Under the pieces are notes generated by a model. That model did not search any database. It was not told the DNA's origin and saw only the letters and a list, made by a program, of their open reading frames with translations. A stretch of 55,386 nt of DNA from NCBI RefSeq assembly GCF_003946335.1, contig NZ_RHNX01000020.1, positions 1 to 55,386 of the forward strand. The letters run 5' to 3'. Of the stretch, positions 6,185 to 55,275 are shown one piece after another; position 1 is the stretch's first letter; each line of letters opens with the position of its first letter. The position numbers and the translations under genes were made by a program. This DNA is from Levilactobacillus fujinensis (lineage in GTDB: Bacteria; Bacillota; Bacilli; Lactobacillales; Lactobacillaceae).

Positions 6185-6463
6185 CTTGTGATAGTAGAGA
6201 CTAGCACCACTAAAATAGTGGAAAACAGTCACACTCCAGCTGCCGGAAATTCCGCTTGGGGAACACCTCCAGCTAAAGAGTGGGCTGCCAGGTCGTCCAA
6301 CGATGTAAGCCAGAAAGGACCCCGACTGACGTTGTCGACACAGCTAGCTGCTTCTCTGGCTCTGATTGGGCACATCCATTTCGAATGTTGAGTTCCAGAT
6401 GAGTGCTAACATTTAATGTAAATCAATAACGTTTCTATGGGCATTTGGGACCTTTAAACCTCC
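6185..6463 (+). repeat. Dispersed intergenic repeat, full-length but diverged copy (R1)
   Basis: This fills most of the 430-base gap before the LCP gene. It begins CTTGTGATAGTAGAGACTAG and continues GTGGAAAACAGTCACACTCC, closely matching 55012-55080 near the right edge. Later landmarks GATGTAAGCCAGAAAG and GGGCATTT also recur in other copies. The central part has drifted. No coding potential. Confidence 0.65.
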
Positions 6464-6495
6464 TTAGTTAAATGACTATTTTTCGTTCAAAACGC

Positions 6496-7494
6496 CTAGA
6501 ATCCAGCTGGTTGAATGGCATCTGTTTGGAAAGTAGTGGTGGTTGACAAGTTTAAAGCGTTACGTAAACTTTTAGAAACTTGTTCGATCTCGTTTTGAGG
6601 GGCAATCTGGTAGTCGATACCATTTATGGTCGCATTTTCGCCCTGCAAGGTCTGAGATTCGATGTGCCGACTGGTGTGACTGTCTTTGGTACGTAGCCAC
6701 ATGAGGTCGTTAAAGCTCAAGTTTGTCTGTAGATTATTGGTCAGTGAGTCCAAGACAGATTGGTAACGGGCCAATGAGCCGATGCCGGCTTCCTTGAGGA
6801 CTAGGGCTTTAATGATTTGGCGTTGTCGTGCCTGACGACCGTAGTCACCGCGTGGATCATCGTCACGCATCCGTGAATAAGCGAGGGCACTGGCGCCGTT
6901 CAAATGAATCTTGACTCCCTTCGTCACGTTAGCCTGTTCATAGTGAAAGGTCAGCAGTGGGTCGACGGTGACACCACCGACCGCATTGATCATCTTTTTT
7001 AGTCCGCCCATGTTGAGTAAGACGTAGTAGCGAATAGGAATGTTAACGAGATGTTCAACCGTCTTAATGGTGGCTTTGGCGCCATACAGTGGATAGGCCG
7101 CGTTGATCTTTTCTTCGTCCTGTTGGCTACCCCAGATGTTGACTAGCGTGTCTCGCGGAATGCTTGTGAGTTTAGCTGTTTGTTTGGACGGGTTAATGGT
7201 GGCTACGATCATGGTATCCGTTCGCCCAATGTCGTGGCGTCCTAAGGCTCCCGTATCGGTACCTAAAAGTAAAATGGCGAAGGGTTTACCACTAGTCAAT
7301 GCCGTGTCGTTTGGCTTGACCCCTGCGGCGTGGTAAGTCTTGGAAAATGTGTTCTGGGCGGCATGCCAAGCTCGAAAGCCGTAAACGCCACCGCCGATAA
7401 GTAGTAAACAAAGAAGTGCGAACAACCAACGCCAAGGTCGATGAGGTCCGTGAATAAAGTGACGCTGGCGTGGTGGTAATGGTGTATTTTTCAT
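6496..7494 (-). CDS. LytR-CpsA-Psr (LCP) family cell-wall glycopolymer ligase
   Basis: Membrane-anchored phosphotransferase that attaches teichoic acid or polysaccharide to peptidoglycan; 332 residues. A short basic cytoplasmic tail is followed by one membrane helix (residues 23-40) and the extracellular LCP domain. Motifs seen: LLLGTDTG, GRTDTMIVATINP, TSIPRDTLVNIWG and KINAAYPLYG, then AYSRMRDDDPRGDYGRQ with the conserved arginines. The start at 7494 follows GGGGGAGGA; an upstream GTG would add 17 residues. It is transcribed alone, divergently from luxS. Substrate polymer cannot be told from sequence. Confidence 0.92.
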   Translation of the reverse strand: MKNTPLPPRQRHFIHGPHRPWRWLFALLCLLLIGGGVYGFRAWHAAQNTFSKTYHAAGVKPNDTALTSGKPFAILLLGTDTGALGRHDIGRTDTMIVATINPSKQTAKLTSIPRDTLVNIWGSQQDEEKINAAYPLYGAKATIKTVEHLVNIPIRYYVLLNMGGLKKMINAVGGVTVDPLLTFHYEQANVTKGVKIHLNGASALAYSRMRDDDPRGDYGRQARQRQIIKALVLKEAGIGSLARYQSVLDSLTNNLQTNLSFNDLMWLRTKDSHTSRHIESQTLQGENATINGIDYQIAPQNEIEQVSKSLRNALNLSTTTTFQTDAIQPAGF

Positions 7495-7722
7495 AGTGAA
7501 TCCTCCCCCTCTAATTCCTCTAATTTCGAAATCCAGTATACCCACGTTTGCCTAGTATGGTGGCAGGAGCGCCTTGAGTTTTACTGTTTCTTAGAGGTCA
7601 GTTTGCAAATTTACTAAGCAATCGTGAAAGCACGTTAAATTAATAGCCGTCGACCTAACTTTTGGTGTAAAGTAGGAATGTACAAATACTTTACATACAA
7701 TTGAAAAAGGGAGTTGGCAATA

Positions 7723-8196
7723 ATGGCAAAAGTTGAAAGTTTTACTTTGGACCACACAGCTGTTAAGGCACCATACGTGCGGTTGATTACCCGGGAAACG
7801 GGCGCTAAAGGCGACGTTATCTCGAACTTTGATTTACGGTTAGTTCAACCCAACACCAATGCAATTCCAACGGCCGGGTTACACACGATTGAACATTTAC
7901 TGGCAGGTTACTTACGTGATGAGATGAGCGGGGTTATTGATTGCTCCCCATTCGGTTGTCGGACCGGTTTCCATTTAATTACTTGGGGTGAACAATCTAC
8001 TGAAGAAGTTGCCAAGGCGTTGAAGGCTGCACTTCACCGGATTGCCTTTGACACGGAATGGAAAGACGTTCAAGGCACTGACAAGTACAGCTGTGGTAAC
8101 TACCGAGACCACAGCCTCTTCTCTGCTAAGGAATGGAGCAAGGATATTTTGGACAAGGGTATTTCTAAAGATCCCTTCACTCGCGAAGTCGTCTAG
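7723..8196 (+). CDS. luxS: S-ribosylhomocysteine lyase LuxS
   Basis: Cytoplasmic Fe/Zn enzyme that cleaves S-ribosylhomocysteine to homocysteine and DPD, the autoinducer-2 precursor, in the activated methyl cycle. 157 residues, the normal length. Metal ligands His54 and His58 with catalytic Glu57 (HTIEH), Cys79 in SPFGCRTG and metal ligand Cys124 in SCGNYRDH are all present. ATG 7723 is used with AAGGGAG upstream. It is monocistronic with a strong terminator; no SAM riboswitch is seen in front. Confidence 0.98.
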
Positions 8197-8219
8197 AGGA
8201 CGTTCAGTTATTAAACAAA

Positions 8220-8255
8220 CCTAGCGCGCCGGCCAATAGGCTAGCGCGCTATTTG
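8220..8255 (+). terminator. Intrinsic terminator after luxS
   Basis: TAGCGCGC (8222-8229) pairs with GCGCGCTA (8244-8251), followed by TTTG. Confidence 0.7.
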
Positions 8256-8323
8256 TTGTGGTACGCTTAATGTAATGAATGGCTGTCAATTGTAAAGATG
8301 ACGTAAGGGGGAGTGTGTTAGTG

Positions 8324-9406
8324 ATGAAGCGGATTAGCAGATGGCTAATCGTCATCGCATGTTTTACGGGCCTCTTTGGGGGTATACAGGCCCAAGCTAT
8401 GGTCAAACAGAAAACGCCGGCATTGCAGCCGGTGGGACGCCTGCGAATACTAAATGATACGCGGGTGCATTTTGTACACGCACCAAAGCACTATGCGCAT
8501 ACCAAACATGTTATGACCCATACCATCAAGTCATCACGGGGAACGTCCGTGACGTTTAAGACTAAGTACCTATTGCCACAACCGGGATATCACCATCAGG
8601 CCTGGGGAAATCCGCAGAGCCTGGCGATGACCGGTCGATATTTGTATGTTGTTTATTGCCCGACGACTTGGCACAACCGGGGTCGAATCGTCCGCTACGA
8701 TGTCAAAAGATTAACAGCATTAAAGGCTACAGCAACTGAACTCCAGCATACGTATGCCAAACACGCAACGCCAAAGGAAAAACGATTGCGTGGTGCCATT
8801 AAAGTTGGTCCCATTTTTGCCACCGGGCACGGTCAATCTTTAGCGTATAACTGGCATAATCATCATTTGTACATGTGGTGTGACCGGGAGAAAAAACCGC
8901 GGGTACCCATCAATCAGTATGGTTATATTCAGCAAATTAGTGCGCACAGTCTGAGGCCAGCCTACCAGATTCGTTTTCGCTTGCATCGCGGGCACTACGC
9001 CGTTCCTGGGGGTCATGTTCTCGCCTTTGATAAGGCCGGCCGGGCCTACTTCTGGTCGAATCCAGCCGGGTATCGGGCAAATATTTATCAGGGGCGAATT
9101 TCACGGCATAAGGTCTCCTTTCGCTTGACCCATCAGGTTTTACGTCGTGGACCCGGAACTCATGTGCAAGGGATTGCCGTAAATCCACATAATAATCGCT
9201 TGTATTTGGTTGCTGATGGATCGATTGCCAGTCTGCCGATTCAGAAATTGGCGGGACGGGGCCATCTGACCGCTAAACAGGTTCGCTGGACGCGATTCGC
9301 GTCGCGCCGAGAGTTCGAAGGCCTCGCGTTTACGACTAGTGGACACGGTTACTTACTCACCAATCATGATCCGGAAATTCTACGGGGAAATCGAATCAGT
9401 TGGTAA
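8324..9406 (+). CDS. Secreted propeller-like protein, paralogue 1
   Basis: A 360-residue probable exported protein with a signal peptide ending near GIQAQA (residues 1-25). The mature part is rich in Tyr, His and Arg, with recurrent strand-like blocks such as GRYLYVVYCPTTWHNRGRI, GHGQSLAYNWHNHHLYMW, GGHVLAFDKAGRAYFW, NNRLYLVADGSIASL and REFEGLAFTTSGHGYLLTN. The spacing of these blocks and the EGLAF ending resemble beta-propeller proteins. No enzyme motif is certain. It follows AGGGGGAG; GTG 8321 is an alternative start. A second paralogue follows 85 bases downstream. Function unknown. Confidence 0.7.
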   Translation: MKRISRWLIVIACFTGLFGGIQAQAMVKQKTPALQPVGRLRILNDTRVHFVHAPKHYAHTKHVMTHTIKSSRGTSVTFKTKYLLPQPGYHHQAWGNPQSLAMTGRYLYVVYCPTTWHNRGRIVRYDVKRLTALKATATELQHTYAKHATPKEKRLRGAIKVGPIFATGHGQSLAYNWHNHHLYMWCDREKKPRVPINQYGYIQQISAHSLRPAYQIRFRLHRGHYAVPGGHVLAFDKAGRAYFWSNPAGYRANIYQGRISRHKVSFRLTHQVLRRGPGTHVQGIAVNPHNNRLYLVADGSIASLPIQKLAGRGHLTAKQVRWTRFASRREFEGLAFTTSGHGYLLTNHDPEILRGNRISW

Positions 9407-9491
9407 GTTCAGATCTTAAAAAAATGAGCTTTACTCCTCAATTGATAGCACTAGTGATAGACTAGCTGAAAAGATTGGGGGGTTAGGGATT

Positions 9492-10589
9492 ATGCGAAAG
9501 TTAGTCGTTTTTGGGGCGTTACTTCTCGGTGTGGGGCTGGGGATAACACCGTTAGTTCCAGCGCATGCCATCACCATGGTTGACCAGACTAAGGCGGCAC
9601 TGACTACGTCGAAGCAGCGACCGCTGGATGACAGTCAGGTTCATTTTGTGTCAGTGCCCAGTAGTTATGCGTCGGCGACTAATCCAAATGGAATCAACAC
9701 CATTGTTAGTGATCAAGGAAGCCCAGTCACGTTTACGACGAAATACTTGTTGCCCATCCCTGGTTATCAACACCAGGCCTGGGGCGATCCGCAGAGTATG
9801 GCGGTCGTCGGCCAGTATCTGTACGTGATCTACTGTCCGACGGCTTGGCATAATCGTGGGCGACTGATCCGGTTTGATATGGCAAAGTTGAGCAGTTTAA
9901 AGGCGACACCGCAGCGGATTCAAAGTATCTACCGCGCGAAAACACCTGTTACGAGCCAGACCAAAGCGATTCGTGCGGCCATTAAAGTTGGCCCCGCATT
10001 TACCACGGGTCATGGGCAATCGTTGGCCTATAACTGGCATGACCATCAGCTTTATATGTGGCAGGACCGTGAGTCCGCGCCACGGATTCCTATCAGTCAG
10101 GCCGGGGTCATTCAACAGCTGAATCCTAGTAGCCTAAGGCCTGTCCGGCTGGTTCATTTCCGTTTGAAGTCCAAGAGCTTAGCTGTTCCTGGCGGTCATG
10201 TGCTGGCGTTCGACCGGCAAGGCAATGCTTATTTCTGGTCACGGCCCAACGCAACCGAGGTCTACCTCTATCGGGGTCACATTGGCCGGCGGCACGTGCA
10301 CTTTCACTTAACCAGTCAGATACTGCAGCACGGTCCCGGCACCTGCGTTCAAAGTATGGCATACAATCCCAACAACGGCCGTCTTTATTTGGTCGCCGAT
10401 GAGTCAATTGCCAGCCTACCAGCCAGCAAGTTGGCTGGGAATGGGAGCCTGACAAGTGGGGATGTGAAATGGACTCACTTTGCCTCCAAGCGAGAGTTTG
10501 AGGGCTTGTCGTTTGGTTACGATGGCAAGGCCTACTTGTTGAGCAATCATCAGCCAGAAGTATTGGTAGGTAATTCATTAAATTGGTAA
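9492..10589 (+). CDS. Secreted propeller-like protein, paralogue 2
   Basis: A 365-residue paralogue of the preceding gene with the same blocks in the same order: GYQHQAWGDPQS, YVIYCPTAWHNRGRL, GHGQSLAYNWHDHQLYMW, GGHVLAFDRQGNAYFW, LYLVADESIASLPASKLAG and REFEGLSFGYDGKAYLLSN. Signal peptide 1-26 ends PAHA. It follows GGGGGG with an ATG at 9492 and a terminator comes after. Conservation is spread over the whole mature chain, so both copies are probably functional rather than one decaying. Confidence 0.7.
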   Translation: MRKLVVFGALLLGVGLGITPLVPAHAITMVDQTKAALTTSKQRPLDDSQVHFVSVPSSYASATNPNGINTIVSDQGSPVTFTTKYLLPIPGYQHQAWGDPQSMAVVGQYLYVIYCPTAWHNRGRLIRFDMAKLSSLKATPQRIQSIYRAKTPVTSQTKAIRAAIKVGPAFTTGHGQSLAYNWHDHQLYMWQDRESAPRIPISQAGVIQQLNPSSLRPVRLVHFRLKSKSLAVPGGHVLAFDRQGNAYFWSRPNATEVYLYRGHIGRRHVHFHLTSQILQHGPGTCVQSMAYNPNNGRLYLVADESIASLPASKLAGNGSLTSGDVKWTHFASKREFEGLSFGYDGKAYLLSNHQPEVLVGNSLNW

Positions 10590-10596
10590 ATTAAGC

Positions 10597-10630
10597 CAAG
10601 GCCGTTCTCTTTAACTGAGACGGCCTTTTT
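10597..10630 (+). terminator. Intrinsic terminator after the propeller-like pair
   Basis: AAGGCCGTTCTC pairs with GAGACGGCCTT (one bulge) followed by TTTTT. Confidence 0.8.
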
Positions 10631-10673
10631 GATCAAGTCGGATTATGGAACGAGCGCTTGATGCAAATGGAAG

Positions 10674-10730
10674 TTGACAGGTAAACTACTTTGTATTACT
10701 ATATAGCAGTACTTGTTATTACAGAGTAGT
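10674..10730 (+). promoter_or_regulatory. padR promoter with inverted-repeat operator
   Basis: TTGACA (10674-10679) and TACTAT (10697-10702) are 17 bases apart. Across the -10 and start lies a wide inverted repeat: ACTACTTTGTATTAC (10685-10699) faces GTTATTACAGAGTAGT (10715-10730), whose complement reads ACTACTCTGTAATAAC. The centre holds a second dyad, TACT-ATATAGC-AGTA. The placement is that expected for an autorepressor. Confidence 0.6.
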
Positions 10731-10743
10731 GAGGAGTAACCCT

Positions 10744-11073
10744 ATGAAAATTGCAACAGAGCTGTTAAAGGGTGTGTTGGAAGGCATCGTCTTGCAACGA
10801 ATTGGCACCGGTGAAACGTACGGCTACGAGATTACCCAATACCTGAATGATCACGGGTTTGAGGATGTTGTTGAGGGCACAGTCTACACAATTTTGATGC
10901 GATTAGAAAAACAACAGTTAGTCGCTATTGAAAAGAAAAAATCAGATCGTGGTCCTGCCCGTAAATTTTATCAACTCAATGCAGCTGGCGAAGAGCGGCG
11001 CGCTCAATTTTGGCAGCAGTGGGCCTACGTCAGCACTCAGATGACGCAGTTAAAGGAGAAAACACATGATTAA
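10744..11073 (+). CDS. PadR-family transcriptional regulator
   Basis: A 109-residue winged-helix repressor. The PadR core is clear: LLKGVLEGIVLQRI, then TYGYEITQYLNDHGF, then EGTVYTILMRLEKQQLV with the recognition helix, then the wing GPARKFYQL and a C-terminal dimerisation helix. ATG 10744 follows GAGGAG. It overlaps the next gene by 8 bases. The inverted repeat in its promoter points to autoregulation. PadR proteins sense phenolics or drugs; the ligand here is unknown. Confidence 0.9.
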   Translation: MKIATELLKGVLEGIVLQRIGTGETYGYEITQYLNDHGFEDVVEGTVYTILMRLEKQQLVAIEKKKSDRGPARKFYQLNAAGEERRAQFWQQWAYVSTQMTQLKEKTHD

Positions 11074-11395
11074 CTACATTAAGAAAATGCGGCAAGAGAA
11101 GCGCGATTATCGTGAATTCAAACGACGGGTGGCGGCCTTACCAGCACCCTATGAGCAAGCAATGACATCGTTGGAAAAATATCTGTGGAATTTAGCCAGT
11201 GGTGATGCGATGTACACTGTGTTAAAGAATATCCTGGACATGTTTGAGTCGGCCGCAGCGGATAGCGTGAGTGTAGAACAAGTGGTGGGCAACGATCTTG
11301 GTGCCTTTGCAGACAATTTACTTGAGGAATTTCCGGAGGCAACCTGGGTCAATCAGCAGAAAGAAAAGCTGCAACGACAAGCATTCAAGAAGTAA
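11066..11395 (+). CDS. DUF1048-family protein, PadR partner
   Basis: A 109-residue soluble, helical protein resembling DUF1048. N-terminal YIKKMRQEKRDYREFKRRV is strongly basic; the middle (ASGDAMYTVLKNILDMFESAAADS) is amphipathic; the C-terminus ends WVNQQKEKLQRQAFKK. DUF1048 genes commonly sit behind padR, here with an 8-base overlap. Molecular role unknown. No ABC transporter or other obvious target is adjacent. Confidence 0.7.
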   Translation: MINYIKKMRQEKRDYREFKRRVAALPAPYEQAMTSLEKYLWNLASGDAMYTVLKNILDMFESAAADSVSVEQVVGNDLGAFADNLLEEFPEATWVNQQKEKLQRQAFKK

Positions 11396-11406
11396 ATTTG
11401 GTTGGG

Positions 11407-11436
11407 AGAAATCGTTCAACTGAACGGTTTCTTTTT
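11407..11436 (+). terminator. Intrinsic terminator after padR operon
   Basis: GAAATCGTTC pairs with GAACGGTTTC around AACT, followed by TTTTTTATT. Confidence 0.8.
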
Positions 11437-11550
11437 TATTATAATAGATAACACCTAATATAATTAAATTTATTAAGCAAAATGATAGCTTTCTGCAGAC
11501 GGCTCCGTTAAGATAGTCAGTATCAGAACTCGCAGGAAAGGGGGCGATGG

Positions 11551-12765
11551 ATGGTGGCGATGAGAATTGCGTTTTTAGTGCAACGCCATGCAGATAAGGG
11601 GCATCCACGCGTACATAATATGTTTGTTATTGGCCAGCCAATTCTTCAAACTGGTGAAGAGGGGACACTGGCTTATAACAAGTCGATGGCCGGATGGGGC
11701 TTGGTGACAACGATAACGTTTGATGAACATCGACGATTTGTCATTGGTTTTTCAACAGACAAGAATATCGTCTTAAATGAAAAGAATGTCGCCACTTATG
11801 AGCAGGCAACGACGGACGATGATCTCAATCAAGTCCTCCGTCATCAGGGATATCAGCTACCGCCAGTGATACCTACGGCAGACAAACAGTTAGCCCAGCA
11901 CCTACGGCAAGTGTTGCCAACGATTCAATGTCTGGATAGTTTACCCAAGGCGTACGTCGTGGTGGACTGTGAATTTGGGATACTCTTTCGCACACAGAAT
12001 ACAGGCAGTCAAATTATTCGGGAACAGGCAGTAACGTTAGGAGAAAAGGCGGGAATCTTTCAGTTGGGCGCGTTGGGCTACGCGGACGATTGCACCCCAA
12101 TGCTGAATTTTAACCGCTACGTCGACAACCCCGCATTTACGCCTGAAATGAAGTTACGTGGTCTAAGAGAAACGGGCTTAACACTGGCAGCATATGAACA
12201 GCAAGCAGCACCATTGGCCGTGCTACAAGCGTTTATTGCGCAGATATTGTGTCAGCATTATCCATTAGTGTTTTGGGATCGAACGAACGATCTGCGCTTA
12301 CTGAGAAATCTATTTGCCGTCCATTATGATGACTTGTCGACGGCGGAACAGCGGATACTAGCGGAGCCCTTAGCCATTTTTGATGGGAGCGAGTACACCA
12401 ACCGCGTCATTACCCGGAGTAATCATCAACGGGAGAGCGTTCACCATTACCTGCCGTTAAATGGGGTTGCAGGGCTGCTGAACGTGTTTAATCCTAATCA
12501 GCATAATGCTTTATGGGATGCCGAAACGACGCATTATGTTGTCCAAGAGCTTGCTAAGATCCATCAAATGGAACCACTGATTTTGGGAGCGCCGCAAGTC
12601 ATTTCTTCTCAGCCTAAACCGCGCAGAACGGTGTCCCAGTCGCCAGCGACCTTTCAGGAGTTGCGGCAAGCCGGACAGACTTACCGGGAGATAGCGACGC
12701 GGTTCGGTGTCAGTGCCAGTACGGTGTGGCGAGCAGTCAAGCACGGCGGAGAACGGGTTAACTGA
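11551..12765 (+). CDS. DEDDh exonuclease-like protein fused to a C-terminal helix-turn-helix
   Basis: A 404-residue protein with three parts. Residues 1-130 are unrecognised. Residues 133-335 look like a DnaQ/RNase T-type 3'-5' exonuclease: VVVDCEF carries Asp139 and Glu141, WDRTNDLRLL supplies Asp243 or Asp247, and HNALWD supplies His318 and Asp323, the HxxxxD of DEDDh enzymes. Residues 367-398 (FQELRQAGQTYREIATRFGV, then SASTVWRAVKHG) form a resolvase-type helix-turn-helix. The basic linker PQVISSQPKPRRTV joins them. The start at 11551 follows GGGGGCG; ATG 11560 is possible. It is monocistronic. The fusion suggests a DNA-targeted nuclease or a repurposed regulator. Confidence 0.65.
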   Translation: MVAMRIAFLVQRHADKGHPRVHNMFVIGQPILQTGEEGTLAYNKSMAGWGLVTTITFDEHRRFVIGFSTDKNIVLNEKNVATYEQATTDDDLNQVLRHQGYQLPPVIPTADKQLAQHLRQVLPTIQCLDSLPKAYVVVDCEFGILFRTQNTGSQIIREQAVTLGEKAGIFQLGALGYADDCTPMLNFNRYVDNPAFTPEMKLRGLRETGLTLAAYEQQAAPLAVLQAFIAQILCQHYPLVFWDRTNDLRLLRNLFAVHYDDLSTAEQRILAEPLAIFDGSEYTNRVITRSNHQRESVHHYLPLNGVAGLLNVFNPNQHNALWDAETTHYVVQELAKIHQMEPLILGAPQVISSQPKPRRTVSQSPATFQELRQAGQTYREIATRFGVSASTVWRAVKHGGERVN

Positions 12766-20783: not shown

Positions 20784-20845
20784 AGTGGAGAACTAAATCC
20801 TAAAGAGGTTAAAAGTGACGTACTTAATCAGGGTTGAAGGGCAGC

Positions 20846-20886
20846 TATTTTACTAATTTAGCCGTGAAAATCTCCACTGTCACAAG
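20846..20886 (-). repeat. Dispersed intergenic repeat, left-end fragment (R2)
   Basis: On the minus strand this reads CTTGTGACAGTGGAGATTTT then CACGGCTAAATTAGTAAAA, matching the start of the copy at 55012 and, less well, the one at 6185. Only the left end is present. Confidence 0.6.
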
Positions 20887-20925
20887 CGTAACGTGAATGA
20901 TTTGGCTTTCTTTAGATGGAGTCTA

Positions 20926-24065: not shown

Positions 24066-24165
24066 CTTGAGGCCGGTAAGGCGATGATTGGACAATGTTG
24101 CCTAATTTTAGTCTCAGTATCGTTGTGACAACGGTCATGATGGGCATTTCAGACCTTTCAACCTT
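24066..24165 (+). repeat. Dispersed intergenic repeat, right-half copy (R3)
   Basis: Matches the shared core: GCCGGTAAGGCGATGATT, then GGACAATGTTGCCTAATTTT, then TCAGTATCGTTGTGACAAC, then GTCATGATGGGCATTT. It sits in the convergent gap between lysR and the alcohol dehydrogenase. Confidence 0.85.
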
Positions 24166-24177
24166 CAGTTTCGTCTA

Positions 24178-24213
24178 AAAAAGGCCGCCAGCAACAGCCA
24201 GCGACCTTCCAAG
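24178..24213 (-). terminator. Intrinsic terminator of the alcohol dehydrogenase gene
   Basis: On the minus strand AAGGTCGCTGGC pairs with GCTGGCGGCCTT (loop TGTT), followed by TTTT. Confidence 0.75.
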
Positions 24214-27128: not shown

Positions 27129-27199
27129 GCTTGGGTTAGTAAGGGTAGTGGTTAGCAGAAATATAATCTAGAGACGTTATGAATACAACTGGAAGCCGC

Positions 27200-27385
27200 A
27201 AAAACTCTTCGTTGACAAGCTTGGAGACGCGGTTTTTTTGAGGCTTTAAGTTGTATTCGCACTGATTAAGCCCATAGCTGCCAGCCGGTAAGGTGATGGA
27301 TAGACAACGTTGCCTATTTTTTGGACCCAGTATCGCTGTGACAACAGTCATAATGCGTATTTTGGACTTTAAACCTCAGCTTTAG
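27200..27385 (+). repeat. Dispersed intergenic repeat copy (R4)
   Basis: Contains GAGGCTTTAAGTTGTATTCG, then CTGCCAGCCGGTAAGGTGAT, then GACAACGTTGCCTATTTTTT, then CCCAGTATCGCTGTGACAAC and AGTCATAATGCGTATTTTGG. It is the reverse of the copy at 35397-35522 in orientation. It occupies most of the gap after the alarmone synthetase. Confidence 0.85.
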
Positions 27386-27391
27386 AGACAT

Positions 27392-32428: not shown

Positions 32429-33266
32429 GAAAACCCCTCCGTTAATGACAATCAAGATGTCTGTCCTTAATAGAATACCATGCAGACTGCTTTGACGAAA
32501 GTCTACCGCATTTTTCGAACAGTTCCGTGAACAACGGGTTAATCTTGGCAAAAACTTAGCCTTTAGTTAGCTGACAAAACTTAACGTGGGAGATGGTCAT
32601 ACGACTTGCTGGTGAAATTCTACCTGCTAGGGGGGATCCTACCAGCCTGAAAAGCGAACTTCTATCGGCGCCAATCGTGCAGACTGCCAAGCCTTGAATC
32701 CCAGATGGCTACTGTTTTGACCGCCAGCTTAAGGTTCCGTTATCGTTGGGTCTGTAGACTGTAACTTTAAATGACGGTTTTGCCGCCGGACCGGCGCACA
32801 CTAGCGATAATGATGAGATAAAACGTGGTCGCGTGGATCAATTCGCTACAGCCGAGTTGACTGGGTGGAAGTAATTGTGTCGTGACTAGTGTTGCGGACA
32901 TGTTTATACTATAGAGTAAGCGGTCTGGTGGCGCCTGAATGAGCTATGATGAAAATCAAAATTAAGGAAGCTTTGAGATGACAAGCAAGGATGAGCAGTC
33001 AGAAATAATCAAACGGTTCCTGTTACGGGTGAAATCGTAGCTATTTTACAAGGAATTAAAAGTTCCCAACCATCACTGATGACGGTTGGGATATCGATAT
33101 TGAGACCAAATTAGGGAGCTGAGTCACCGGGTGCCAGGAACGATGTGAGCACAACTTAAAGCCTCGAAATATCGCGGCTACAAGCTTGGCTTTTGCTAAG
33201 CAAGTGAAAGCCACTCACACCCACGCAAAGAAAAAATTCAAGAGTTTTTAAAAGGAGGAATGTCCG
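32429..33266. other. 840-base gene-poor region with a repeat and a possible gene remnant
   Basis: Upstream of divergent yfhO and the two-component genes. It contains a GCTGGT/ACCAGC hairpin (about 32609-32646) and a CCCAACC/GGTTGGG hairpin (33066-33091). It also holds a degenerate repeat copy (33090-33172). A short frame at 32978-33040 (MTSKDEQSEIIKRFLLRVKS) has AAGGAAG upstream and may be the start of a decayed gene. No functional gene seen. Confidence 0.5.
33090..33172 (-). repeat. Dispersed intergenic repeat, degenerate copy (R5)
   Basis: On the minus strand it reads CGAGGCTTTAAGTTGTGCTC and then CTAATTTGGTCTCAATATCG, matching landmarks of the copy at 35397-35522. The GGTAAGGCGATG part is altered. 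Confidence 0.5.
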
Positions 33267-35396: not shown

Positions 35397-35522
35397 CTAG
35401 TATGACTGTTGTAACAGCAATACTGAGAGTAAAACTAGGCAACGTTGTCCAGTCATCGCCTTACCGGCTGGCAGATATGGGCTGGACCGGTGCGAACACA
35501 ACTTGAAGCCTCGAAAGTACTG
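35397..35522 (-). repeat. Dispersed intergenic repeat copy (R6)
   Basis: Minus strand: GAGGCTTCAAGTTGTGTTCG, CTGCCAGCCGGTAAGGCGAT, GACTGGACAACGTTGCCTAG, CTCAGTATTGCTGTTACAAC, AGTCATACTAG. Nearly collinear with the copy at 27240-27370. Confidence 0.85.
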
Positions 35523-35539
35523 AGTCTCCAAATTTGGTT

Positions 35540-35583
35540 TTCTACTAAGTCAGTGGGTGGTTTTTCTCACTGACTTAGTAGAA
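35540..35583. terminator. Perfect 16-bp inverted repeat
   Basis: TTCTACTAAGTCAGTG (35540-35555) faces its exact complement at 35568-35583. A TTTTT tract is in the loop, not after the stem, so it is a weak terminator candidate. Confidence 0.45.
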
Positions 35584-35788
35584 CGATGCGCCTGAGACTA
35601 ATGTTAGGTAGTGAAGTCTGGTTATCCTTACTTGCTGGTTCAGAAACAATACGGATTATGCCCGTTTTTACGAAACCAAAGGAGCTTACCGAACAAAATG
35701 GGGGGTAATCGTTCGGCCCGTATGGGAAAGAGTTCCAATGGGGGCGCTTGTATGGTAAGATTTAAGGCATTAAGAGTACGGCGGCCAG

Positions 35789-42546: not shown

Positions 42547-42744
42547 TACTAACTTAGCATGCACACATAAAACTGTCAATTATCTCGACTCAGCGGTTAG
42601 ACGGTAAAATAGTTTAGGGGTTGGGTGATTTTTAGTGTACATCTCAAAAATCGTATGATAGACTAATTGAAGAACTGTGGTCTTACTATTAGCTAGTTTT
42701 AATGTTTAGGTTAGATAAGGTTGACATTGTCACGACTAACTCTT

Positions 42745-42810
42745 TATAGTTGTTGGAACAATGATACTGAGATTAGGCTTAGGTAGCGTGGTTCGGTCAT
42801 CTTCAATGTA
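42745..42810 (-). repeat. Dispersed intergenic repeat, partial copy (R7)
   Basis: Minus strand: GATGACCGAACCACGCTACC, then TAAGCCTAATCTCAGTATCA, then TTGTTCCAACAAC. It forms an inverted pair with the copy at 43003. Confidence 0.65.
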
Positions 42811-43002
42811 GGATAGTAAGAATCGTTACCGCTGAATGAGTGGCAATGACCGCCTCCGGCTTAAATTGGGTAGGCCAATTTTAAGCGCTGAATCCCTGTT
42901 GATTGTCAGAGTTTGAACTTAATTCAACAACGTTGCTAGAAGCATAAGTCGTGTTGCCTCAGGTCACCCAAATAAACCGAGAATTCGGCGGATATGGGTT
43001 CA

Positions 43003-43108
43003 GGCGTGTTCGCACCGATCCAGCTCATATCCCGGTAAGGCGATGACGGAACTAAGTTACCTAAGTTTGACTTCGGTATCGGTTACACCAGTCATAAGCG
43101 GCGTTTGG
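43003..43108 (+). repeat. Dispersed intergenic repeat copy (R8)
   Basis: CGTGTTCGCACCGATCCAGC, CATATCCCGGTAAGGCGATG, ACGGAACTAAGTTACCTAAG, CGGTATCGGTTACACCAGTC and ATAAGCGGCGTTTGG follow the family order with more drift than the 24 kb and 35 kb copies. Confidence 0.75.
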
Positions 43109-43120
43109 AAAGATAGACAA

Positions 43121-49399: not shown

Positions 49400-49444
49400 T
49401 CTGAAGTACCTCATCGAAGACAAACAAATGGAGGGCGATTCTAT

Positions 49445-49870: not shown

Positions 49871-49908
49871 TAGAAGACTATTGACTTAAATATACTAAGA
49901 TTAACTCT

Positions 49909-50006
49909 AAAAGTTGCTGCTTTCAGAATCGTTAAATTCTGAAAGCAGCAACTTTTATTTATGCCACTATGGTGCTGAAACGTGCACCATAAGGCAGTTT
50001 ATTGCG
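49909..50006 (+). repeat. Hairpin repeat copy B (also terminator of the Spx-like gene)
   Basis: AAAAGTTGCTGCTTTCAGAA (from 49909) faces its complement ending at 49956, followed by TTTTATTT and the tail CACTATGGTGCTGAAACGTG. It is homologous to 4023-4120. The loop side has one broken pair relative to copy A. Confidence 0.85.
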
Positions 50007-50093
50007 CTTAACGTGATAGTAAAAGTTATGCCAAAATCAGGCATAATTCCTGTTATCACGTTAATGCTCGTTATGTCCCACTCTGTATCATAG

Positions 50094-51068
50094 TTAGACA
50101 ATTTTAGGGCCAGGCGTTGAGGCAATGATCTCTAGTGCCTCACCAGTCACTGTCCAGTGCTGAATCGTAGAAGGCAAGATGAAGTGATCGCCGGTCTTCA
50201 ACGGATAAGCGGTACCAGCAATGCCAAGGCTCCCAGTTCCGTGGAGCACGGAAGCCAGGGTGAAGCTGGTCTGGGGTTGATCGAAGTGACATGTTCCGTT
50301 TGGTAAAAGCCATTGGTAGACACCAAAGTAAGGACTCTTGATAAATGTCGTGAGGGTCGCGCCCTCCTTGGTGGTTGTCGTACGTTTCAACTGTGGGTCG
50401 ATTTGAGGGACACTGATCACGTTGAGGGCATCAGCAATATCCAAATGTCTCTTCTGGTGGGTCTTAGGCGAGATGCGGTCAAAGTCGTAGAGGCGGTAAG
50501 TCGTGTCGGAACTCTGTTGGGTCTCGAGTGCCAAGACCCCTTTTCCCAGAGCATGAATGGTACCAGCTGGGACGTAGACAAACTGGCCAGCGTGAATCGG
50601 GATTTCACGCAATAATTTATCCCAGTTCCCTTGAGCAACCCAGTTGGTGAGCTGCTGCCGGCTGGTTGCGTTATGGCCGTAATACAGGACAGCCCCCGGG
50701 TCCGCTGCAATGATGTACCAGCATTCCGTCTTCCCCAACTCGTGGGCGTGGATCGCCGCGTACTGGTTGGCGGGATGAACCTGAATAGATAAGTTGTTGT
50801 GAGCATCCAGAATTTTGACCAGAAGAGGAAAAGCGCCGCTAGTATCTTTGTGGCCGAAAAGTTCGGCGTGCTGATGCCATAATGAGTCGAGTGCCATGCC
50901 GCTAAAGGGACCGTTCATGACGTGAGTCAGACCATTGGGATGACCACTGATTCCCCAGCACTCACCGGTCTGATCCGAGGGAATGTCGTAGTTGAATCTA
51001 CTATGTAATCGGGTGCCGCCCCAGATTTTTTCGTGAAACACCGGGCGTAGAAATAAGGGTTCGTTCAT
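50094..51068 (-). CDS. manA: Mannose-6-phosphate isomerase, class I
   Basis: Zinc enzyme interconverting mannose-6-phosphate and fructose-6-phosphate; 324 residues as in Firmicute enzymes. Zn ligands fall in LSIQVHPANQYA (Gln, His), in KTECWYII (Glu) and in PAGTIHAL (His). The conserved EKIWGGTRL is at the start. Monocistronic, with a near-consensus cre site upstream, so catabolite control is likely. Confidence 0.95.
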   Translation of the reverse strand: MNEPLFLRPVFHEKIWGGTRLHSRFNYDIPSDQTGECWGISGHPNGLTHVMNGPFSGMALDSLWHQHAELFGHKDTSGAFPLLVKILDAHNNLSIQVHPANQYAAIHAHELGKTECWYIIAADPGAVLYYGHNATSRQQLTNWVAQGNWDKLLREIPIHAGQFVYVPAGTIHALGKGVLALETQQSSDTTYRLYDFDRISPKTHQKRHLDIADALNVISVPQIDPQLKRTTTTKEGATLTTFIKSPYFGVYQWLLPNGTCHFDQPQTSFTLASVLHGTGSLGIAGTAYPLKTGDHFILPSTIQHWTVTGEALEIIASTPGPKIV

Positions 51069-51162
51069 GCTGTCAGACTCCTTAATCTAAGATTGAATTA
51101 ACCGGCAAGCTGTTAATTAGCTGACTTGTCTTACTGAAAAGTCTAGCTGTTTTTTGCGGTTT

Positions 51163-51176
51163 TGTAAACGTTTGCA
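51163..51176. promoter_or_regulatory. cre site before manA
   Basis: TGTAAACGTTTGCA matches the CcpA consensus with one deviation on either strand and is nearly palindromic. It is about 95 bases before the manA start. Confidence 0.65.
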
Positions 51177-51315
51177 TTAAGGTATAATCAATGCGTTGAT
51201 CGCTGTCCTGCGTTTCAACTATGTAGATTCGGAAATACCAAAGGAGTCCGGGGCTGTGTTCCAGGCCCGTGACACAATTTCTGAAGAGATGAAGCTAAGG
51301 ATTGTGAGTTTCCCA

Positions 51316-51432
51316 ATGCCTACTATGACGGTTATCACTGTGATACTGTGCTTAAAATTAGGCAATCTTGCCTCGCCTTACCTGCTAGTCGCTAGGGACT
51401 GAAATTGCGCCGAACATAACTTGAGGTCGGCT
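51316..51432 (-). repeat. Dispersed intergenic repeat copy (R9)
   Basis: Minus strand: GACCTCAAGTTATGTTCGGC, GCAGGTAAGGCGAGGCAAGA, TTGCCTAATTTTAAGCACAG, TATCACAGTGATAACCGTCA. The family order is kept with moderate drift. Confidence 0.75.
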
Positions 51433-51517
51433 CTTTACTAGTGGTGTTTCCCCCGGTAAGTGCAATCCTTGGCAGCCGGTGTACGACCATTTTCAGTGAC
51501 AAAACTTTTTGGTGATG

Positions 51518-51563
51518 AAAAAACACGCTAAAATCGTCTGGCTTACAGACAATCTCAGCGTGC
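51518..51563 (-). terminator. Intrinsic terminator of the NlpC/P60 gene
   Basis: Minus strand CACGCTGAGATTGTCTG pairs with CAGACGATTTTAGCGTG, followed by TTTTTTC. Confidence 0.75.
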
Positions 51564-51628
51564 TGAATTGATGTCGAAATATTATTGTCACTAAAAATCG
51601 TGGCGATGCAATGGATCACTATCTGGGC

Positions 51629-52405
51629 TTAGCTCAAAGTGGCTGGCCGTGAATAACCGACCGTATGCCACCAAGAAACGTTAGTGGCCTCGGTGATGAC
51701 GCCGTTCAATTGGGCGTCGATCATCTTGTTATTGCCAAGGTAGATCCCACAGTGCGTGATAGCCGCCGCGCTAGTGCCGAAGAAAATCAGGTCGCCAGGC
51801 TGGGCATTAGCTGCACTGACGTGAGTGTAACTGTTGTACTGTTGTTGGGCAGTGCGGGGGAGTGTCTGCCCGAGGGCCTTACTAAAGACATATTTGGTGA
51901 AACCGGAGCAATCAAATGCACTGGGACCATTACCCCCATACGCATAGGGCTTTCCTAACTGCGACTTGGCTGCACTCAGGATCGAGGCATACGTGCCGTT
52001 ACCAGTGGTTGAGACGCTGGTCGTGTTGGTGTGCGCGTAGCTCTTAGGCGTCAGGTAACCGTGCCAGATCCAGCCAGACGCGGTCCCCCGGCCGTTGGTG
52101 ACGTAGTAGTAAAGGTATTTGACACCATTTTTCTTAACGATGTAGCGCTTCTGCGTTGCATGCCAAGTGGTGTTGGGATAATTTTTCAGGTAGTGGGTCT
52201 TCTTGCCAAAGCTCATGTTGCTAGCCGTTCCGCCTAGGTTGTAGGTCCACCCGGTCGTGCTCTTGCGGACGTAAGCCGTATTTGTCATGGACGTTGTGCT
52301 GAGAATCGTATTGGTACTGTTGGCGTGAGCGGTGGTACCGACGCTCAGAGCCGGTACGACGGCTGCAGCAAATGCTACGGCCAAACTAATTTGTTTGATT
52401 TTCAT
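51629..52405 (-). CDS. Secreted NlpC/P60 peptidoglycan hydrolase with GWIW surface module
   Basis: A 258-residue exported endopeptidase. Signal peptide 1-28 (ends AHA). An SH3-like/GWIW module spans about 45-120 and ends GWIWHGYLTPK, related to the two proteins at 4.3-6.1 kb. The NlpC/P60 domain is from about 138: Cys166 in FDCSGFTKYVF, His218 in ITHCGIYLG. The third catalytic position (usually His in the MIHA-type motif) is Asp230 here (MIDA). It probably cuts D-Glu to diamino acid bonds in wall peptides. Monocistronic. Confidence 0.9.
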   Translation of the reverse strand: MKIKQISLAVAFAAAVVPALSVGTTAHANSTNTILSTTSMTNTAYVRKSTTGWTYNLGGTASNMSFGKKTHYLKNYPNTTWHATQKRYIVKKNGVKYLYYYVTNGRGTASGWIWHGYLTPKSYAHTNTTSVSTTGNGTYASILSAAKSQLGKPYAYGGNGPSAFDCSGFTKYVFSKALGQTLPRTAQQQYNSYTHVSAANAQPGDLIFFGTSAAAITHCGIYLGNNKMIDAQLNGVITEATNVSWWHTVGYSRPATLS

Positions 52406-52942
52406 CGAATATTGCCATCCCTCATATGTAAATTTTTATTCTCTTCAGTTACTAAGATAGTCGTTTTGGGTTACAGAATAGTTGCGGGGCAATATCATTG
52501 TCATTACTGTTTTGTGCCCATCTATGTAATATTACTACACGGGTTAGATGATTAGTCGCGGTGAGTGCGCTGAATGCTTACAATAAAAGGAACGGACGGA
52601 AAGTATCGTACACGAGGAGAAAATAAGTTAGGATGAAATGTTGGGACTAACCCGTGATTTTTGGCGGCTCGCGGTAACCTGAGGGGTAGGCAATGAGACC
52701 ACCCCGTAGAGAAGGCGTGCAAACACCCCGTTGTTGATTTGACTAAAGTTTTGCCAAAAACCTTGCCGGATTGTCTCTTGTTCCAATCACGTGAAGGAAT
52801 TAACATTGTAGTTGTAAAGTTGAAAGCGCTTAAAAGGACGGTGGCGACCCTGCTGCTGGCTTTGAAGCGAGCAGTAAAACTGTGTTACATAGGGAAAAAT
52901 CCCAAATTTAACAGTTGTTTCTAAGCTGAGGAGGTTGCATCC
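52406..52942. other. 540-base gap between the NlpC/P60 and dehydratase genes
   Basis: No gene seen; the open frames present lack ribosome sites. It carries divergent regulatory sequence, including the cre-like site at 52821-52834. GTGTTACATAGG around 52881 may be part of the dehydratase promoter. Confidence 0.4.
52821..52834 (+). promoter_or_regulatory. Candidate cre site before the dehydratase gene
   Basis: TGAAAGCGCTTAAA has the central AGCGCT palindrome of CcpA sites; the last CA is AA. It is 109 bases before the start. Confidence 0.45.
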
Positions 52943-54454
52943 ATGCTCAAACATGTTGTGAAAATGCGCCCAAACGATAACGTTGCCATTGCGGTCCACG
53001 ATTTACACGTTGGGGACAAGATTAAAGGCGACATTACCGTCAACGACGAAATTCCCCAAGCCCATAAGATTGCCCTGGTTAATTTAGCCAAGGGTGATGC
53101 CGTCTTACGTTACGGTGTCGTCCTGGGTTATGCCAAGAGCGATATTCAGGCGGGGGACTGGATCAATGAAACCAGTCTGGAATTACCACCGTCGCCAGAT
53201 TTGAACAAGCTGACTTATGGTACGAACATTCGTAAGGATTTACCGAAGCCGAAACGAACCACGTTTATGGGCTACGAAGTGCCGGGGAACAAGTATGCCG
53301 GCACGCGGAACATTTTGGGGATTCAAACCACGGTACAATGTGTGGTTGGGGTCTTAAAGATTGCCGTAGATCGGATCAAACAGGAACTTTTACCGAAGTA
53401 TCCGCACGTGGATGACGTCACGGTTGTCAGTCACCAGTACGGTTGTGGGGTCGCCATTGACGCACCCGAAGCCAAGGTCCCAATTCGTGAAATCAGAAAT
53501 ATCGTGAAGAACCCGAACTTTGGTGGTCAAATCATGGTCGTTGGCTTAGGCTGTGAAAAGTTGACGCCAGACCGAATCTTAGACCCAGAAGATATTAATG
53601 ACGATAACCTCTTGTATCTCCAGAACTACAAGGGCTTTGAAAAAATGATCACGGCTATTATGGAAATGGCTGATAAGAAATTGGCCGTTTTGGAAACCCA
53701 TCGACGGACAGAACAACCATTGTCGAAGCTATCCGTTGGGTTCCAATGCGGTGGGAGTGATGCCTTCTCCGGTGTGACTGGCAACCCATCCGCTGGGTAT
53801 GCGTCCGACCTGTTAGTTGCCGGTGGGGGGACTGCGATGTTCTCCGAAGTTACCGAAGTTCGTGATGGGGTCGACTTCATTGCGCAACGGATTCCAGACC
53901 AACCTAACTGTAATAAGCTGGTTAAGGAAATGTCTTGGTACGATAACTACTTGGCTAAGGGCGGTGTTGACCGTTCAGCCAACCCAACGCCAGGTAACCG
54001 CAAAGGTGGGTTATCCACCATTGTTGAAAAGTCCATGGGCTCCATTGCGAAGTCTGGGACCGCACCGATTTCCCAAGTGGTCAGTGCCGGTGAAATTCCA
54101 ACGAAACGTGGGTTGATCTTCAATGCCACGCCAGCTGGAGACTTTACGACTGGACCAATGCAACTGGCTTCTGGGATGGGCCTGGAAGTCTTCGTTACGG
54201 GCCGAGGCACGCCTTACAACCTGCAAGCAGCGCCCGTCATCAAGGTCTGCACGCGGACTGACCTGAAGGAATTCTGGAGCGACTTGATCGACATCAACGC
54301 CGGCAAGGTCGCAACGGGTGATTTGACCGTTGAAGAACTCGGGACGGAATTGTTCAACTTCATTTTGGATGTCGCTAGTGGTGAAAAGCCAGCCGCAGAA
54401 CGTTTGAAGCTCTACAACGATATCTGCATCTTCAACCCGGCACCAATGACTTAA
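52943..54454 (+). CDS. uxaA: Altronate/galactarate dehydratase family protein
   Basis: A 503-residue UxaA/GarD-family enzyme that dehydrates a sugar acid to a 2-keto-3-deoxy acid. N-terminal SAF-like region 1-100, then the large catalytic domain. Conserved parts: GTRNILGIQTTVQCVVG, SHQYGCGVA, GLGCEK and FQCGGSDAFSG, with cysteines that may bind iron. ATG 52943 follows GAGGAGG. No uronate isomerase, oxidoreductase or KDG kinase gene is nearby, so the precise substrate (altronate or galactarate) is open. Confidence 0.85.
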   Translation: MLKHVVKMRPNDNVAIAVHDLHVGDKIKGDITVNDEIPQAHKIALVNLAKGDAVLRYGVVLGYAKSDIQAGDWINETSLELPPSPDLNKLTYGTNIRKDLPKPKRTTFMGYEVPGNKYAGTRNILGIQTTVQCVVGVLKIAVDRIKQELLPKYPHVDDVTVVSHQYGCGVAIDAPEAKVPIREIRNIVKNPNFGGQIMVVGLGCEKLTPDRILDPEDINDDNLLYLQNYKGFEKMITAIMEMADKKLAVLETHRRTEQPLSKLSVGFQCGGSDAFSGVTGNPSAGYASDLLVAGGGTAMFSEVTEVRDGVDFIAQRIPDQPNCNKLVKEMSWYDNYLAKGGVDRSANPTPGNRKGGLSTIVEKSMGSIAKSGTAPISQVVSAGEIPTKRGLIFNATPAGDFTTGPMQLASGMGLEVFVTGRGTPYNLQAAPVIKVCTRTDLKEFWSDLIDINAGKVATGDLTVEELGTELFNFILDVASGEKPAAERLKLYNDICIFNPAPMT

Positions 54455-54476
54455 AAATGAAAAGCAACAGACGGAG

Positions 54477-54512
54477 GGCCAATAGCTGGTAAACTGGCTA
54501 TCGGCTTTTCTG
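54477..54512 (+). terminator. Intrinsic terminator after uxaA
   Basis: GCCAATAGC pairs with GCTATCGGC (one mismatch), followed by TTTTCTG. Confidence 0.65.
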
Positions 54513-54530
54513 TCAGAGGAGGAAACTAGA

Positions 54531-54845
54531 ATGGCTGAAAATGAACAGGTTGAAGAAGCTGTCATGACTGCGTTAGAAGGGGTCATTGACCCAGAATTGA
54601 CGATTGATATTGTGAACTTAGGCCTCATTTATGGGGTCACCGTTGAAGGCGATAAATGTATTGTTAAAATGACGTTGACCACGATGGGGTGCCCCTTAAG
54701 TGATCTGCTAAATGACCAGATCACAGCGGCCGCATTGTCAGTGGACGGTGTCGAACACTGTGATATTGATCTCGTTTGGGAGCCAGCCTGGGACATGGGG
54801 CAGATGACCCGGTACGCGAAGGTGTCCTTGGGGGTTCATGGCTAA
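54531..54845 (+). CDS. MIP18-family (DUF59) Fe-S cluster assembly factor, SufT-like
   Basis: A 104-residue cytoplasmic protein. MIP18 motifs: VIDPELTIDIVNLGLIYGV near the N-terminus and TTMGCPLSDLLNDQI with the reactive Cys, then VWEPAWDMGQMT. SufT-type proteins help mature Fe-S enzymes. Placement after a dehydratase with likely Fe dependence is suggestive, though a terminator separates them. Good AGGAGG site. Confidence 0.9.
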   Translation: MAENEQVEEAVMTALEGVIDPELTIDIVNLGLIYGVTVEGDKCIVKMTLTTMGCPLSDLLNDQITAAALSVDGVEHCDIDLVWEPAWDMGQMTRYAKVSLGVHG

Positions 54846-54910
54846 AAGCTGGTGGTTACATGTTTGATCACCACTAGGGTCCTTTCTCTAAACTGAATTT
54901 GATTAATAAA

Positions 54911-54955
54911 TAAACCGGTCACATTGCCATTCCCGCAATGTGACCGGTTTATTTT
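54911..54955 (+). terminator. Intrinsic terminator after the MIP18-family gene
   Basis: A perfect 16-bp stem, AAACCGGTCACATTGC with its complement (54912-54927/54935-54950), ending TTTATTTT. Confidence 0.9.
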
Positions 54956-55011
54956 AAGTTAACTGACTAAAGACATGTGGTGATATGTCAAGCCAAAATA
55001 TTTGCGTTGCT

Positions 55012-55275
55012 CTTGTGACAGTAGGAATTATCACGGCTAAATTAGTGAAAACAGCCGTACTCCGGCTACCAGGGATTCCGCTGGCTATGGAGGAATGCCT
55101 CCAGCCAAAGGACGGGCTTTCGACTCGCCTGAAAGCCACCAAGTTCAGGCGTCTCTCAGGTGTCCCACGATGTAAGCCGGAAAAGCGTCAGCCGGTAAGA
55201 TGATGGTTGGACAGCGTTGCCTAATTTTAGGCCCAGTATCGTTGTGACAACAGTCATAATGAGTGTTTTGACGCG
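55012..55275 (+). repeat. Dispersed intergenic repeat, best full-length copy (R10)
   Basis: About 264 bases. The left half starts CTTGTGACAGTAGGAATTAT and shares ACGGCTAAATTAGTGAAAAC with R2 and R1. It has internal stems GGAGG/CCTCC (55089-55102) and GGCTTTC/GAAAGCC. The right half carries GCCGGTAAGATGATGG, GGACAGCGTTGCCTAATTTT, CCCAGTATCGTTGTGACAAC and AGTCATAATGAGTGTTTTG. No coding potential. Confidence 0.85.

What the first reader, a model, noticed from the sequence alone, without database searches (positions are those of the whole stretch)
6185..55275. A family of structured, non-coding dispersed repeats on both strands
At least nine intergenic segments share ordered landmarks: a left half starting CTTGTGACAGTAG, and a right half with GGTAAGGCGATGA, GGACAACGTTGCCTAATTTT, CAGTATCGTTGTGACAAC and AGTCATAATG. 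Copies are near 6.2, 20.8 (minus), 24.1, 27.2, 33.1 (minus), 35.4 (minus), 42.7 (minus), 43.0, 51.3 (minus) and 55.0 kb. None is coding. They lie in gaps next to terminators, not inside genes. The dyads (ACAACGTTG, GTTGTGACAAC) suggest a folded RNA or a protein target. It could be a non-autonomous mobile element, a chromosome-organising site or a transcript-stabilising element. I know of no described family that matches.
Basis: seen in the sequence. Interest (0 to 1): 0.8.

Follow-up and report, generated by a model that had tools for sequence, protein, structure and literature searches.

The report
Mobile repeats carrying a conserved fold
Many lactic-acid bacteria carry scattered copies of a jumping DNA element that contains an apparently unrecorded folded structure, and in the copies compared between close species evolution has kept that structure after the element landed, which suggests that it does something for the cell.

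Summary
The repeats are real: all ten listed places hold copies (42.7 kb only weakly) and an eleventh lies near 41.2 kb. Most window copies are decayed pieces of a ~620-bp element. Intact copies elsewhere in the genome have 14-bp terminal inverted repeats and 6-8 bp target duplications, exact in 11 of 17 elements: a non-autonomous transposon. Inside are two paralogous ~175-nt domains in divergent orientation, each folding as a three-way junction. Across genera 55 of 56 pairs show double-sided changes and 96.5% of cells pair. The domain model hits 66 of 251 Lactobacillaceae genomes in 13 of 40 genera, but only the window's own among 299 of the class. No Rfam family reached its cut-off on it. 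Orthologous resident copies keep the fold: stem-breaking changes 11 against 56 expected; domain B 95.2% identical against 78.4% at fourfold sites. No promoter, terminator or gene-orientation signal was found, so I lean to a DNA-level role; RNA is not excluded. The transposase partner was not found. An earlier idea, that domain A is dispensable for movement, failed its test.

The parts
6151..6444 (+). left end, A domain and spacer of an element; right half not found
   Evidence: profile hit E 4.9e-57, positions 16-359
20836..20910 (-). left-arm fragment
   Evidence: profile hit E 4.4e-12, positions 25-100
24071..24178 (+). right-arm fragment ending in an exact terminal repeat at 24155-24168
   Evidence: profile hit E 7.9e-28; terminal repeat
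27129..27387 (+). decayed B domain and right arm
   Evidence: profile hit E 1.5e-44 over 27216-27387; fold model 30.3 bits over 27129-27294
33054..33239 (-). decayed B domain and right arm
   Evidence: profile hit E 3.2e-17; fold model 36.0 bits
35367..35665 (-). best window copy: part of spacer, B domain, right arm
   Evidence: profile hit E 1.8e-63; fold model 91.6 bits over 35482-35596
   Evidence: profile hits E 6.5e-6 and 1.9e-8
42716..42800 (-). right-arm fragment, weak
   Evidence: profile hit E 0.001
42847..43109 (+). spacer and right arm with B domain mostly deleted
   Evidence: profile hits E 6.5e-30 and 1.1e-15; fold model 35.4 bits
51292..51499 (-). left-arm/A piece joined to B end and right arm
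   Evidence: profile hits E 1.5e-15 and 1.9e-6
54990..55290 (+). left arm and most of A joined to right arm; B deleted, terminal repeats not recognisable
   Evidence: profile hits E 4.8e-60 and 2.2e-24; the same left and right pieces lie some 500 bp apart in fuller copies

Best explanation
A Lactobacillaceae-wide family of non-autonomous transposons (MITE-like). SHOWN: terminal inverted repeats CTRAAGGTTGAAAG/CTTTCAACCTTYAG; 6-8 bp (mostly 7-8) target duplications; intergenic position, enriched between convergent genes. The interior carries one or two paralogous ~175-nt domains, typically as a divergent inverted pair, each a three-way junction whose pairs covary and whose unpaired bases are conserved, with the favoured strand reading outward in each half. 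In eight groups of orthologous resident copies in three close species the fold is kept, with a strong deficit of stem-breaking changes. INFERRED: a DDE-type transposase supplied in trans moves the element by its terminal repeats. After insertion the folded strand is used by the cell, most likely as DNA: a strand-specific hairpin structure, exposed when the duplex opens, that a host protein binds. The inverted pair then offers one sense copy on each strand whatever the insertion orientation. My odds for the level of action: DNA 0.5, RNA 0.35, neither 0.15.
For: Mobility: exact 6-8 bp duplications in 11 of 17 elements (mismatched flanks 0.26% for 7-mers, none for 6- and 8-mers); 8 of 16 end pairs in other genomes, one of them Pediococcus damnosus, against 0 of 240; 192 terminal repeats in the genome against 38 for the reversed pattern; two species with insertions ~14 bp apart, each uninterrupted at the other's point. 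Fold: 30 of 56 pairs with double changes in an unfitted alignment, 55 of 56 in a model-fitted one (0 of 500 shuffles; slid structures pair at most 51.6%). Strand: G.T 95 against A.C 14 cells. Neighbouring domains within 700 bp: 59 divergent, 2 tandem, 0 convergent. Selection after insertion. For DNA rather than RNA: no promoter excess upstream, no T-run excess downstream, no sense/antisense bias to tandem genes (25 of 48), divergent domains as little as 3 bp apart, G.T share 3.6% against 15.3% in RNase P of the genus, and repeated precise loss of domain A between short direct repeats at the base of its stem, which recalled work on palindromes ascribes to hairpins in single-stranded DNA.
Against: No autonomous element with these ends was found and no binding protein is known. 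Many copies, most in the window included, have lost the fold, and A is missing at one locus of G015 that G020 and G012 retain, so not every copy is under selection. The orthologous groups were chosen from copies the model recognises. G.T greatly exceeds A.C, which fits RNA at least as well as single-stranded DNA. The promoter test is weak: only 31.8% of gene upstream regions pass it.
Confidence: 0.65

Rival explanations
1. The domain is a structured RNA. Copies are transcribed by read-through or by promoters I could not see; the inverted pair puts one sense domain in a transcript from either side, acting as a terminator, stability element or sRNA.
For: Covarying three-way junction with conserved unpaired bases; G.T 95 against A.C 14 on one strand; G.T 15 against A.C 3 among variable stem pairs of orthologues.
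Against: No promoter excess, no T-run excess, no orientation bias to genes, terminator-like sites before the element in 37 of 100 genes reading into it, much as in element-free gaps, 66 of 160, G.T share a quarter of that of RNase P.
Confidence: 0.35
2. An ordinary selfish MITE: the fold serves only transposition or its control, and resident copies are passive debris.
For: Convergent-gene enrichment (25 of 83 against 55 of 285) is what the pneumococcal repeats show and was read there as a sign of parasitism (PMC3049150, passages); decayed copies are common. My test that domain A is dispensable for movement failed, so a role of the domains in movement stays open; I raised this rival from 0.2 to 0.25 for that.
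Against: Resident orthologous copies keep the fold; the domains, not the terminal repeats and arms, are the most conserved parts.
Confidence: 0.25
3. The repeats are chromosome-organising or replication-related sites.
For: In G018 85 elements leave a 788-kb gap (P about 1.6e-11) around the GC-skew turn at about 1.37 Mb; six 20-kb samples inside the gap gave no hit even at E 1, the 14 others gave 10 strong hits.
Against: G032 has elements near its terminus, and neither genome shows a bias of the best domain to fork direction (46 of 85; 49 of 96).
Confidence: 0.1

Closest known systems
BOX/RUP/SPRITE repeats of Streptococcus pneumoniae (PMC3049150, abstract and passages seen)
   Same: Many intergenic copies, tightly folded, over-represented between convergent genes, thought mobile
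   Different: Different host range; here a long domain with a covarying three-way junction, usually doubled as a divergent inverted pair, found in 13 genera, and kept at resident loci. Sequences were not compared directly
MITEs in general (Correia elements, Nezha: named in PMC3049150 passages; bcr1 recalled)
   Same: Terminal inverted repeats, target duplications, no gene, internally deleted copies
   Different: No matching parent insertion sequence found; the fold is conserved more than the ends
REP/BIME elements with RAYT transposases (recalled)
   Same: Dispersed intergenic hairpins, often as inverted pairs, strand-specific
   Different: Here terminal inverted repeats and 6-8 bp duplications, which REP movement is not known to make; far longer fold
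Integron attC sites (recalled)
   Same: Strand-specific folded DNA with conserved unpaired bases
   Different: Integrase and cassette context not examined; different architecture
Rfam families; nearest weak match BSR0739, a Brucella sRNA
   Same: On two loci the domain strand matched it weakly: 23.8 and 22.2 bits (E 0.26 and 0.68; 0.0077 for one when searched alone)
   Different: Far below the family's gathering score of 191; a 65-nt insertion is needed; no match to full-length copy L007 or in the other-genus loci. I take it as chance

Membership tests
MITE (non-autonomous TIR transposon) | terminal inverted repeats | tested here: met
   192 ends against 38 in control; inverted pairs
MITE (non-autonomous TIR transposon) | target-site duplication | tested here: met
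   6-8 bp; exact in 11 of 17 elements and 8 of 16 end pairs
MITE (non-autonomous TIR transposon) | no coding capacity | tested here: met
   longest stop-free stretch 103 aa in a 621-bp copy
MITE (non-autonomous TIR transposon) | ends shared with an autonomous insertion sequence | tested here: inconclusive
   none at 3 mismatches in 30 PF01609 loci; five long end pairs held no ORF that I recognised as a transposase by eye; other transposase families not searched
Structured RNA family (Rfam) | match to a curated covariance model at its cut-off | tested here: not met
   window at gathering; 7 loci, 12 loci mostly of other genera, L007 element at E-value thresholds; weak BSR0739 matches only; unrelated T-box, SRP and 23S-methyl elements nearby were found
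Structured RNA family (Rfam) | transcribed | not testable with these tools
   no expression data; indirect signals negative
BOX/RUP/SPRITE | sequence or module homology | not tested
   no direct alignment made; the domain model hit no other genome of the class sample
REP/BIME | movement without target duplication by a Y1 transposase (recalled) | tested here: not met
   6-8 bp duplications; the transposase itself was not looked for
attC sites | adjacent integron integrase | not tested
   not searched

The most novel reading that the evidence does not exclude
A new class of strand-specific folded DNA element: spread by transposition, then domesticated at many chromosomal sites per genome across a bacterial family, where an unidentified host protein uses the structure.
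Probability: 0.33. Interest if true: 0.88.

Novelty: new variant of a known kind. Interest (0 to 1): 0.75.

Why it matters
A very strongly covarying fold in a well-studied food-bacterium family appears to be unrecorded in Rfam and in the papers I could search. It occurs with up to 135 domain hits in a genome (capped at 150 scored) and travels in a transposon. Its retention after insertion makes 'are bacterial MITEs ever domesticated, and for what?' testable in harmless laboratory strains such as Levilactobacillus brevis.

Tried and rejected
Rejected or failed. Protein-coding remnant: no long frame. Domain A dispensable for movement: copies without A share one junction and have different duplications, but on a tree each lies nearest to a copy with A or among them (L044 98.3% to L007, L057 94.2% to L003), so A was lost repeatedly, not once in a moving subfamily; the claim is withdrawn. 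Plasmid or phage origin: no match for four queries in 72,556 plasmids, one query in 50,697 phage records, or a pattern in viral contigs; one hit lies on a small contig of G032 that may be a plasmid. Autonomous partner: not found. General terminus exclusion: seen in G018, not in G032. Fork-direction bias: none. RNA genes with their own promoters and terminators: no signal. Gene conversion as the cause of conservation: orthologues 94.6% against same-genome paralogues 69.4%. Papers: searches listed none that describes these repeats as far as titles and abstract openings show; passages of one paper were read.
Full report
OBSERVATION. The landmarks are above chance, and a profile from 11 near-full-length copies on other contigs recovers all ten listed places, that near 42.7 kb only at E 0.001, and one more near 41.2 kb. 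The window is contig C17 of a 3.0-Mb draft genome of 103 contigs.

ANATOMY. Searching the own genome with the 55.0-kb copy gave 64 matched pieces; left pieces (query 2-186) and right pieces (192-271) lie some 500 bp apart, so the window copy is internally deleted. Full copies are ~620 bp: CTRAAGGTTGAAAG, left arm, domain A, ~95-bp spacer, domain B, right arm, CTTTCAACCTTYAG. Among the 11 aligned copies mean pairwise difference is 0.064 in B, 0.084 in A, 0.209 in the spacer, 0.161 and 0.128 in the arms. Four contigs start or end 77-79 bp beyond the left piece (C24, C52, C47, C21), as expected of a repeat that breaks assembly.

MOBILITY. The terminal repeat occurs 192 times (two mismatches allowed) against 38 for the reversed pattern. 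In fetched own-genome loci, 20 inverted end pairs 299-914 bp apart (17 loci, three with an alternative end) gave 7 exact 7-bp, 2 exact 6-bp and 2 exact 8-bp flanking duplications; mismatched flanks gave exact 7-mers in 0.26% and no 6- or 8-mers. In loci from other genomes 8 of 16 pairs were exact against 0 of 240, including Pediococcus damnosus (L255) and L. koreensis (L218); P. ethanolidurans (L231) had exact ends but no exact duplication. The end motif lies downstream of the domain in 18 of 147 copies, upstream in 0, reversed in 2. G000 and L. enshiensis carry elements ~14 bp apart in one intergenic region with different duplications; with the elements excised the flanks align through both points. 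G000 keeps an uninterrupted match to the enshiensis target; the reverse point is uninterrupted but its six bases differ.

A WITHDRAWN CLAIM. Five copies (L044, L054, L057, L058, L097) lack A at one junction, four with different exact duplications, and L098 lacks both domains. I first read this as a moving subfamily that shows A to be dispensable. A tree of the remaining parts scatters them among copies with A, so A has been lost repeatedly, between the CTCCGG repeats at the base of its stem. That says nothing about its need in movement. It is what slippage across a DNA hairpin would give (recalled).

FOLD. B domains of 18 genomes (A1, 24 sequences) give 56 pairs, 30 with compensatory double changes. 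Domain A is B inverted: the B model finds A on the opposite strand, and consensus energy and G.T:A.C counts favour the outward strand for both (B: 61 G.T, 10 A.C; reversed A: 85, 15; -48 against -24 kcal/mol for A and -68 against -53 for B on the other strand). A model built from A1 aligned 49 domains, about half from other genera: 96.5% of cells paired, 55 of 56 pairs with changes on both sides, 0 of 500 shuffles as good, slid controls at most 51.6%. That alignment was fitted to the model, which favours it. Conserved unpaired or mismatched bases include CTCAG and CGTTCCAG at the junction and the CTTAG motif. A single full copy folds better than shuffles on both strands (z -7.5 and -5.2).

DISTRIBUTION. 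By sequence 31 of 35 genus genomes matched. The model matched 66 of 251 Lactobacillaceae genomes, own included, in 13 of 40 genera. Among 299 genomes of the class only the window's own matched; such large searches use stricter filters and lose weak hits. Copy numbers at E<=0.001, with 150 candidates scored per genome: G000 96, G018 135, G032 121, G005 84, G034 39, G086 14. Named hosts include Levilactobacillus, Companilactobacillus, Pediococcus and Schleiferilactobacillus (80 of 113 stretches listed, scan stopped at its limit). In those 80 loci, 168 non-overlapping domain hits (of 174) form 59 divergent neighbours within 700 bp, 1 of each tandem order and no convergent pair. Within one genome many copies share little beyond the domain itself.

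CONTEXT. Of 107 elements 2 overlap an ORF over 200 aa, both in metagenome locus L201. Flanking genes of 83: 25 convergent, 48 tandem, 10 divergent, against 55, 166, 64 for gaps in the same loci (ORFs called by length only). In tandem settings the best domain is sense in 25 of 48; the median distance to the upstream stop is 90 bp. Of 100 genes reading into an element, 37 have a terminator-like site before it (12 on the other strand), 6 within it (6), 14 after it (26), against 66 of 160 genes with element-free gaps. Promoter-like sites upstream of the domain: 13.1%, shuffled 19.3%, upstream of genes 31.8%. T-runs after the domain exceed A-runs in one of five intervals only.

SELECTION AFTER INSERTION. 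In orthologous regions of three close species domain B is 95.2% identical (1311 of 1377), A 92.2%, nearby intergenic 85.2%, fourfold sites 78.4% (5 of 7 comparisons pooled). Against this: intergenic positions further away scored 96.7%, probably partly coding sequence that my ORF caller missed; in L328/L333 nearby intergenic was 94.3%; in L326/L342 and L325/L339 fourfold sites were 93.0% and 90.7%; A is absent from G015 at one locus. Between orthologous B copies (8 groups, 14 comparisons, not all independent) stem-breaking changes were 11 against 56 expected, double compensatory 6 against 1.4, one-sided wobble 16 against 24, unpaired 92 against 47; orthologues 94.6% identical, same-genome paralogues 69.4%. 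The copies were taken from model hits, so decayed orthologues could be missed; at this divergence a few broken pairs would hardly have removed a copy from the list, so I think the bias does not explain the deficit.

RNA OR DNA. One-strandedness is shown by G.T 95 against A.C 14 and 15 against 3 in variable stem pairs of orthologues. The G.T share, 3.6%, is far below RNase P in the genus, 15.3% (24 of 29 loci used, many of its pairs invariant). The indirect signs of transcription are negative. I lean to DNA but cannot exclude RNA.

CHROMOSOME POSITION. In G018 none of 135 hits lies between 929 and 1717 kb (29% of the chromosome; P about 1.6e-11); GC skew turns at about 1.37 Mb. Six 20-kb samples inside the gap gave no hit at E 1, the 14 others 10 strong hits. 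G032, with its terminus near 0.46 Mb by skew, does not show this: 10 elements fall at 530-662 kb.

COMPARISON. By ends and duplications it is a MITE-like element. By fold it matches no Rfam family at its cut-off; two loci gave 22-24 bits to BSR0739, gathering score 191, which I take as chance. The nearest published relatives in behaviour are the pneumococcal repeats (PMC3049150, passages read).

Noticed in passing
window 4018-4118 and 49904-50004: A second repeat pair (101 nt, 86% alike), each with a perfect 22-bp inverted repeat.
   Followed up: no
window 4240-5223 and 5220-6065: Two adjacent genes with similar N-terminal halves (SSQYSAQRS...), apparently a tandem duplication.
   Followed up: no
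L085 2120-2244: Another inverted-repeat sequence beside the element that does not look like this family.
   Followed up: no
L055 (C10:4724-5617): An element copy carries an extra ~344 bp at element position ~101, with an older decayed copy just upstream.
   Followed up: partly
L044, L054, L057, L058, L097, L098: Repeated loss of domain A (in L098 also B) at one junction between short direct repeats.
   Followed up: partly
G018 chromosome 929-1717 kb: Terminus-centred third of the chromosome without model hits, not seen in G032.
   Followed up: partly
L327 and L334: 2.9 kb identical between two species that otherwise differ by several percent, perhaps recent transfer or contamination.
   Followed up: no
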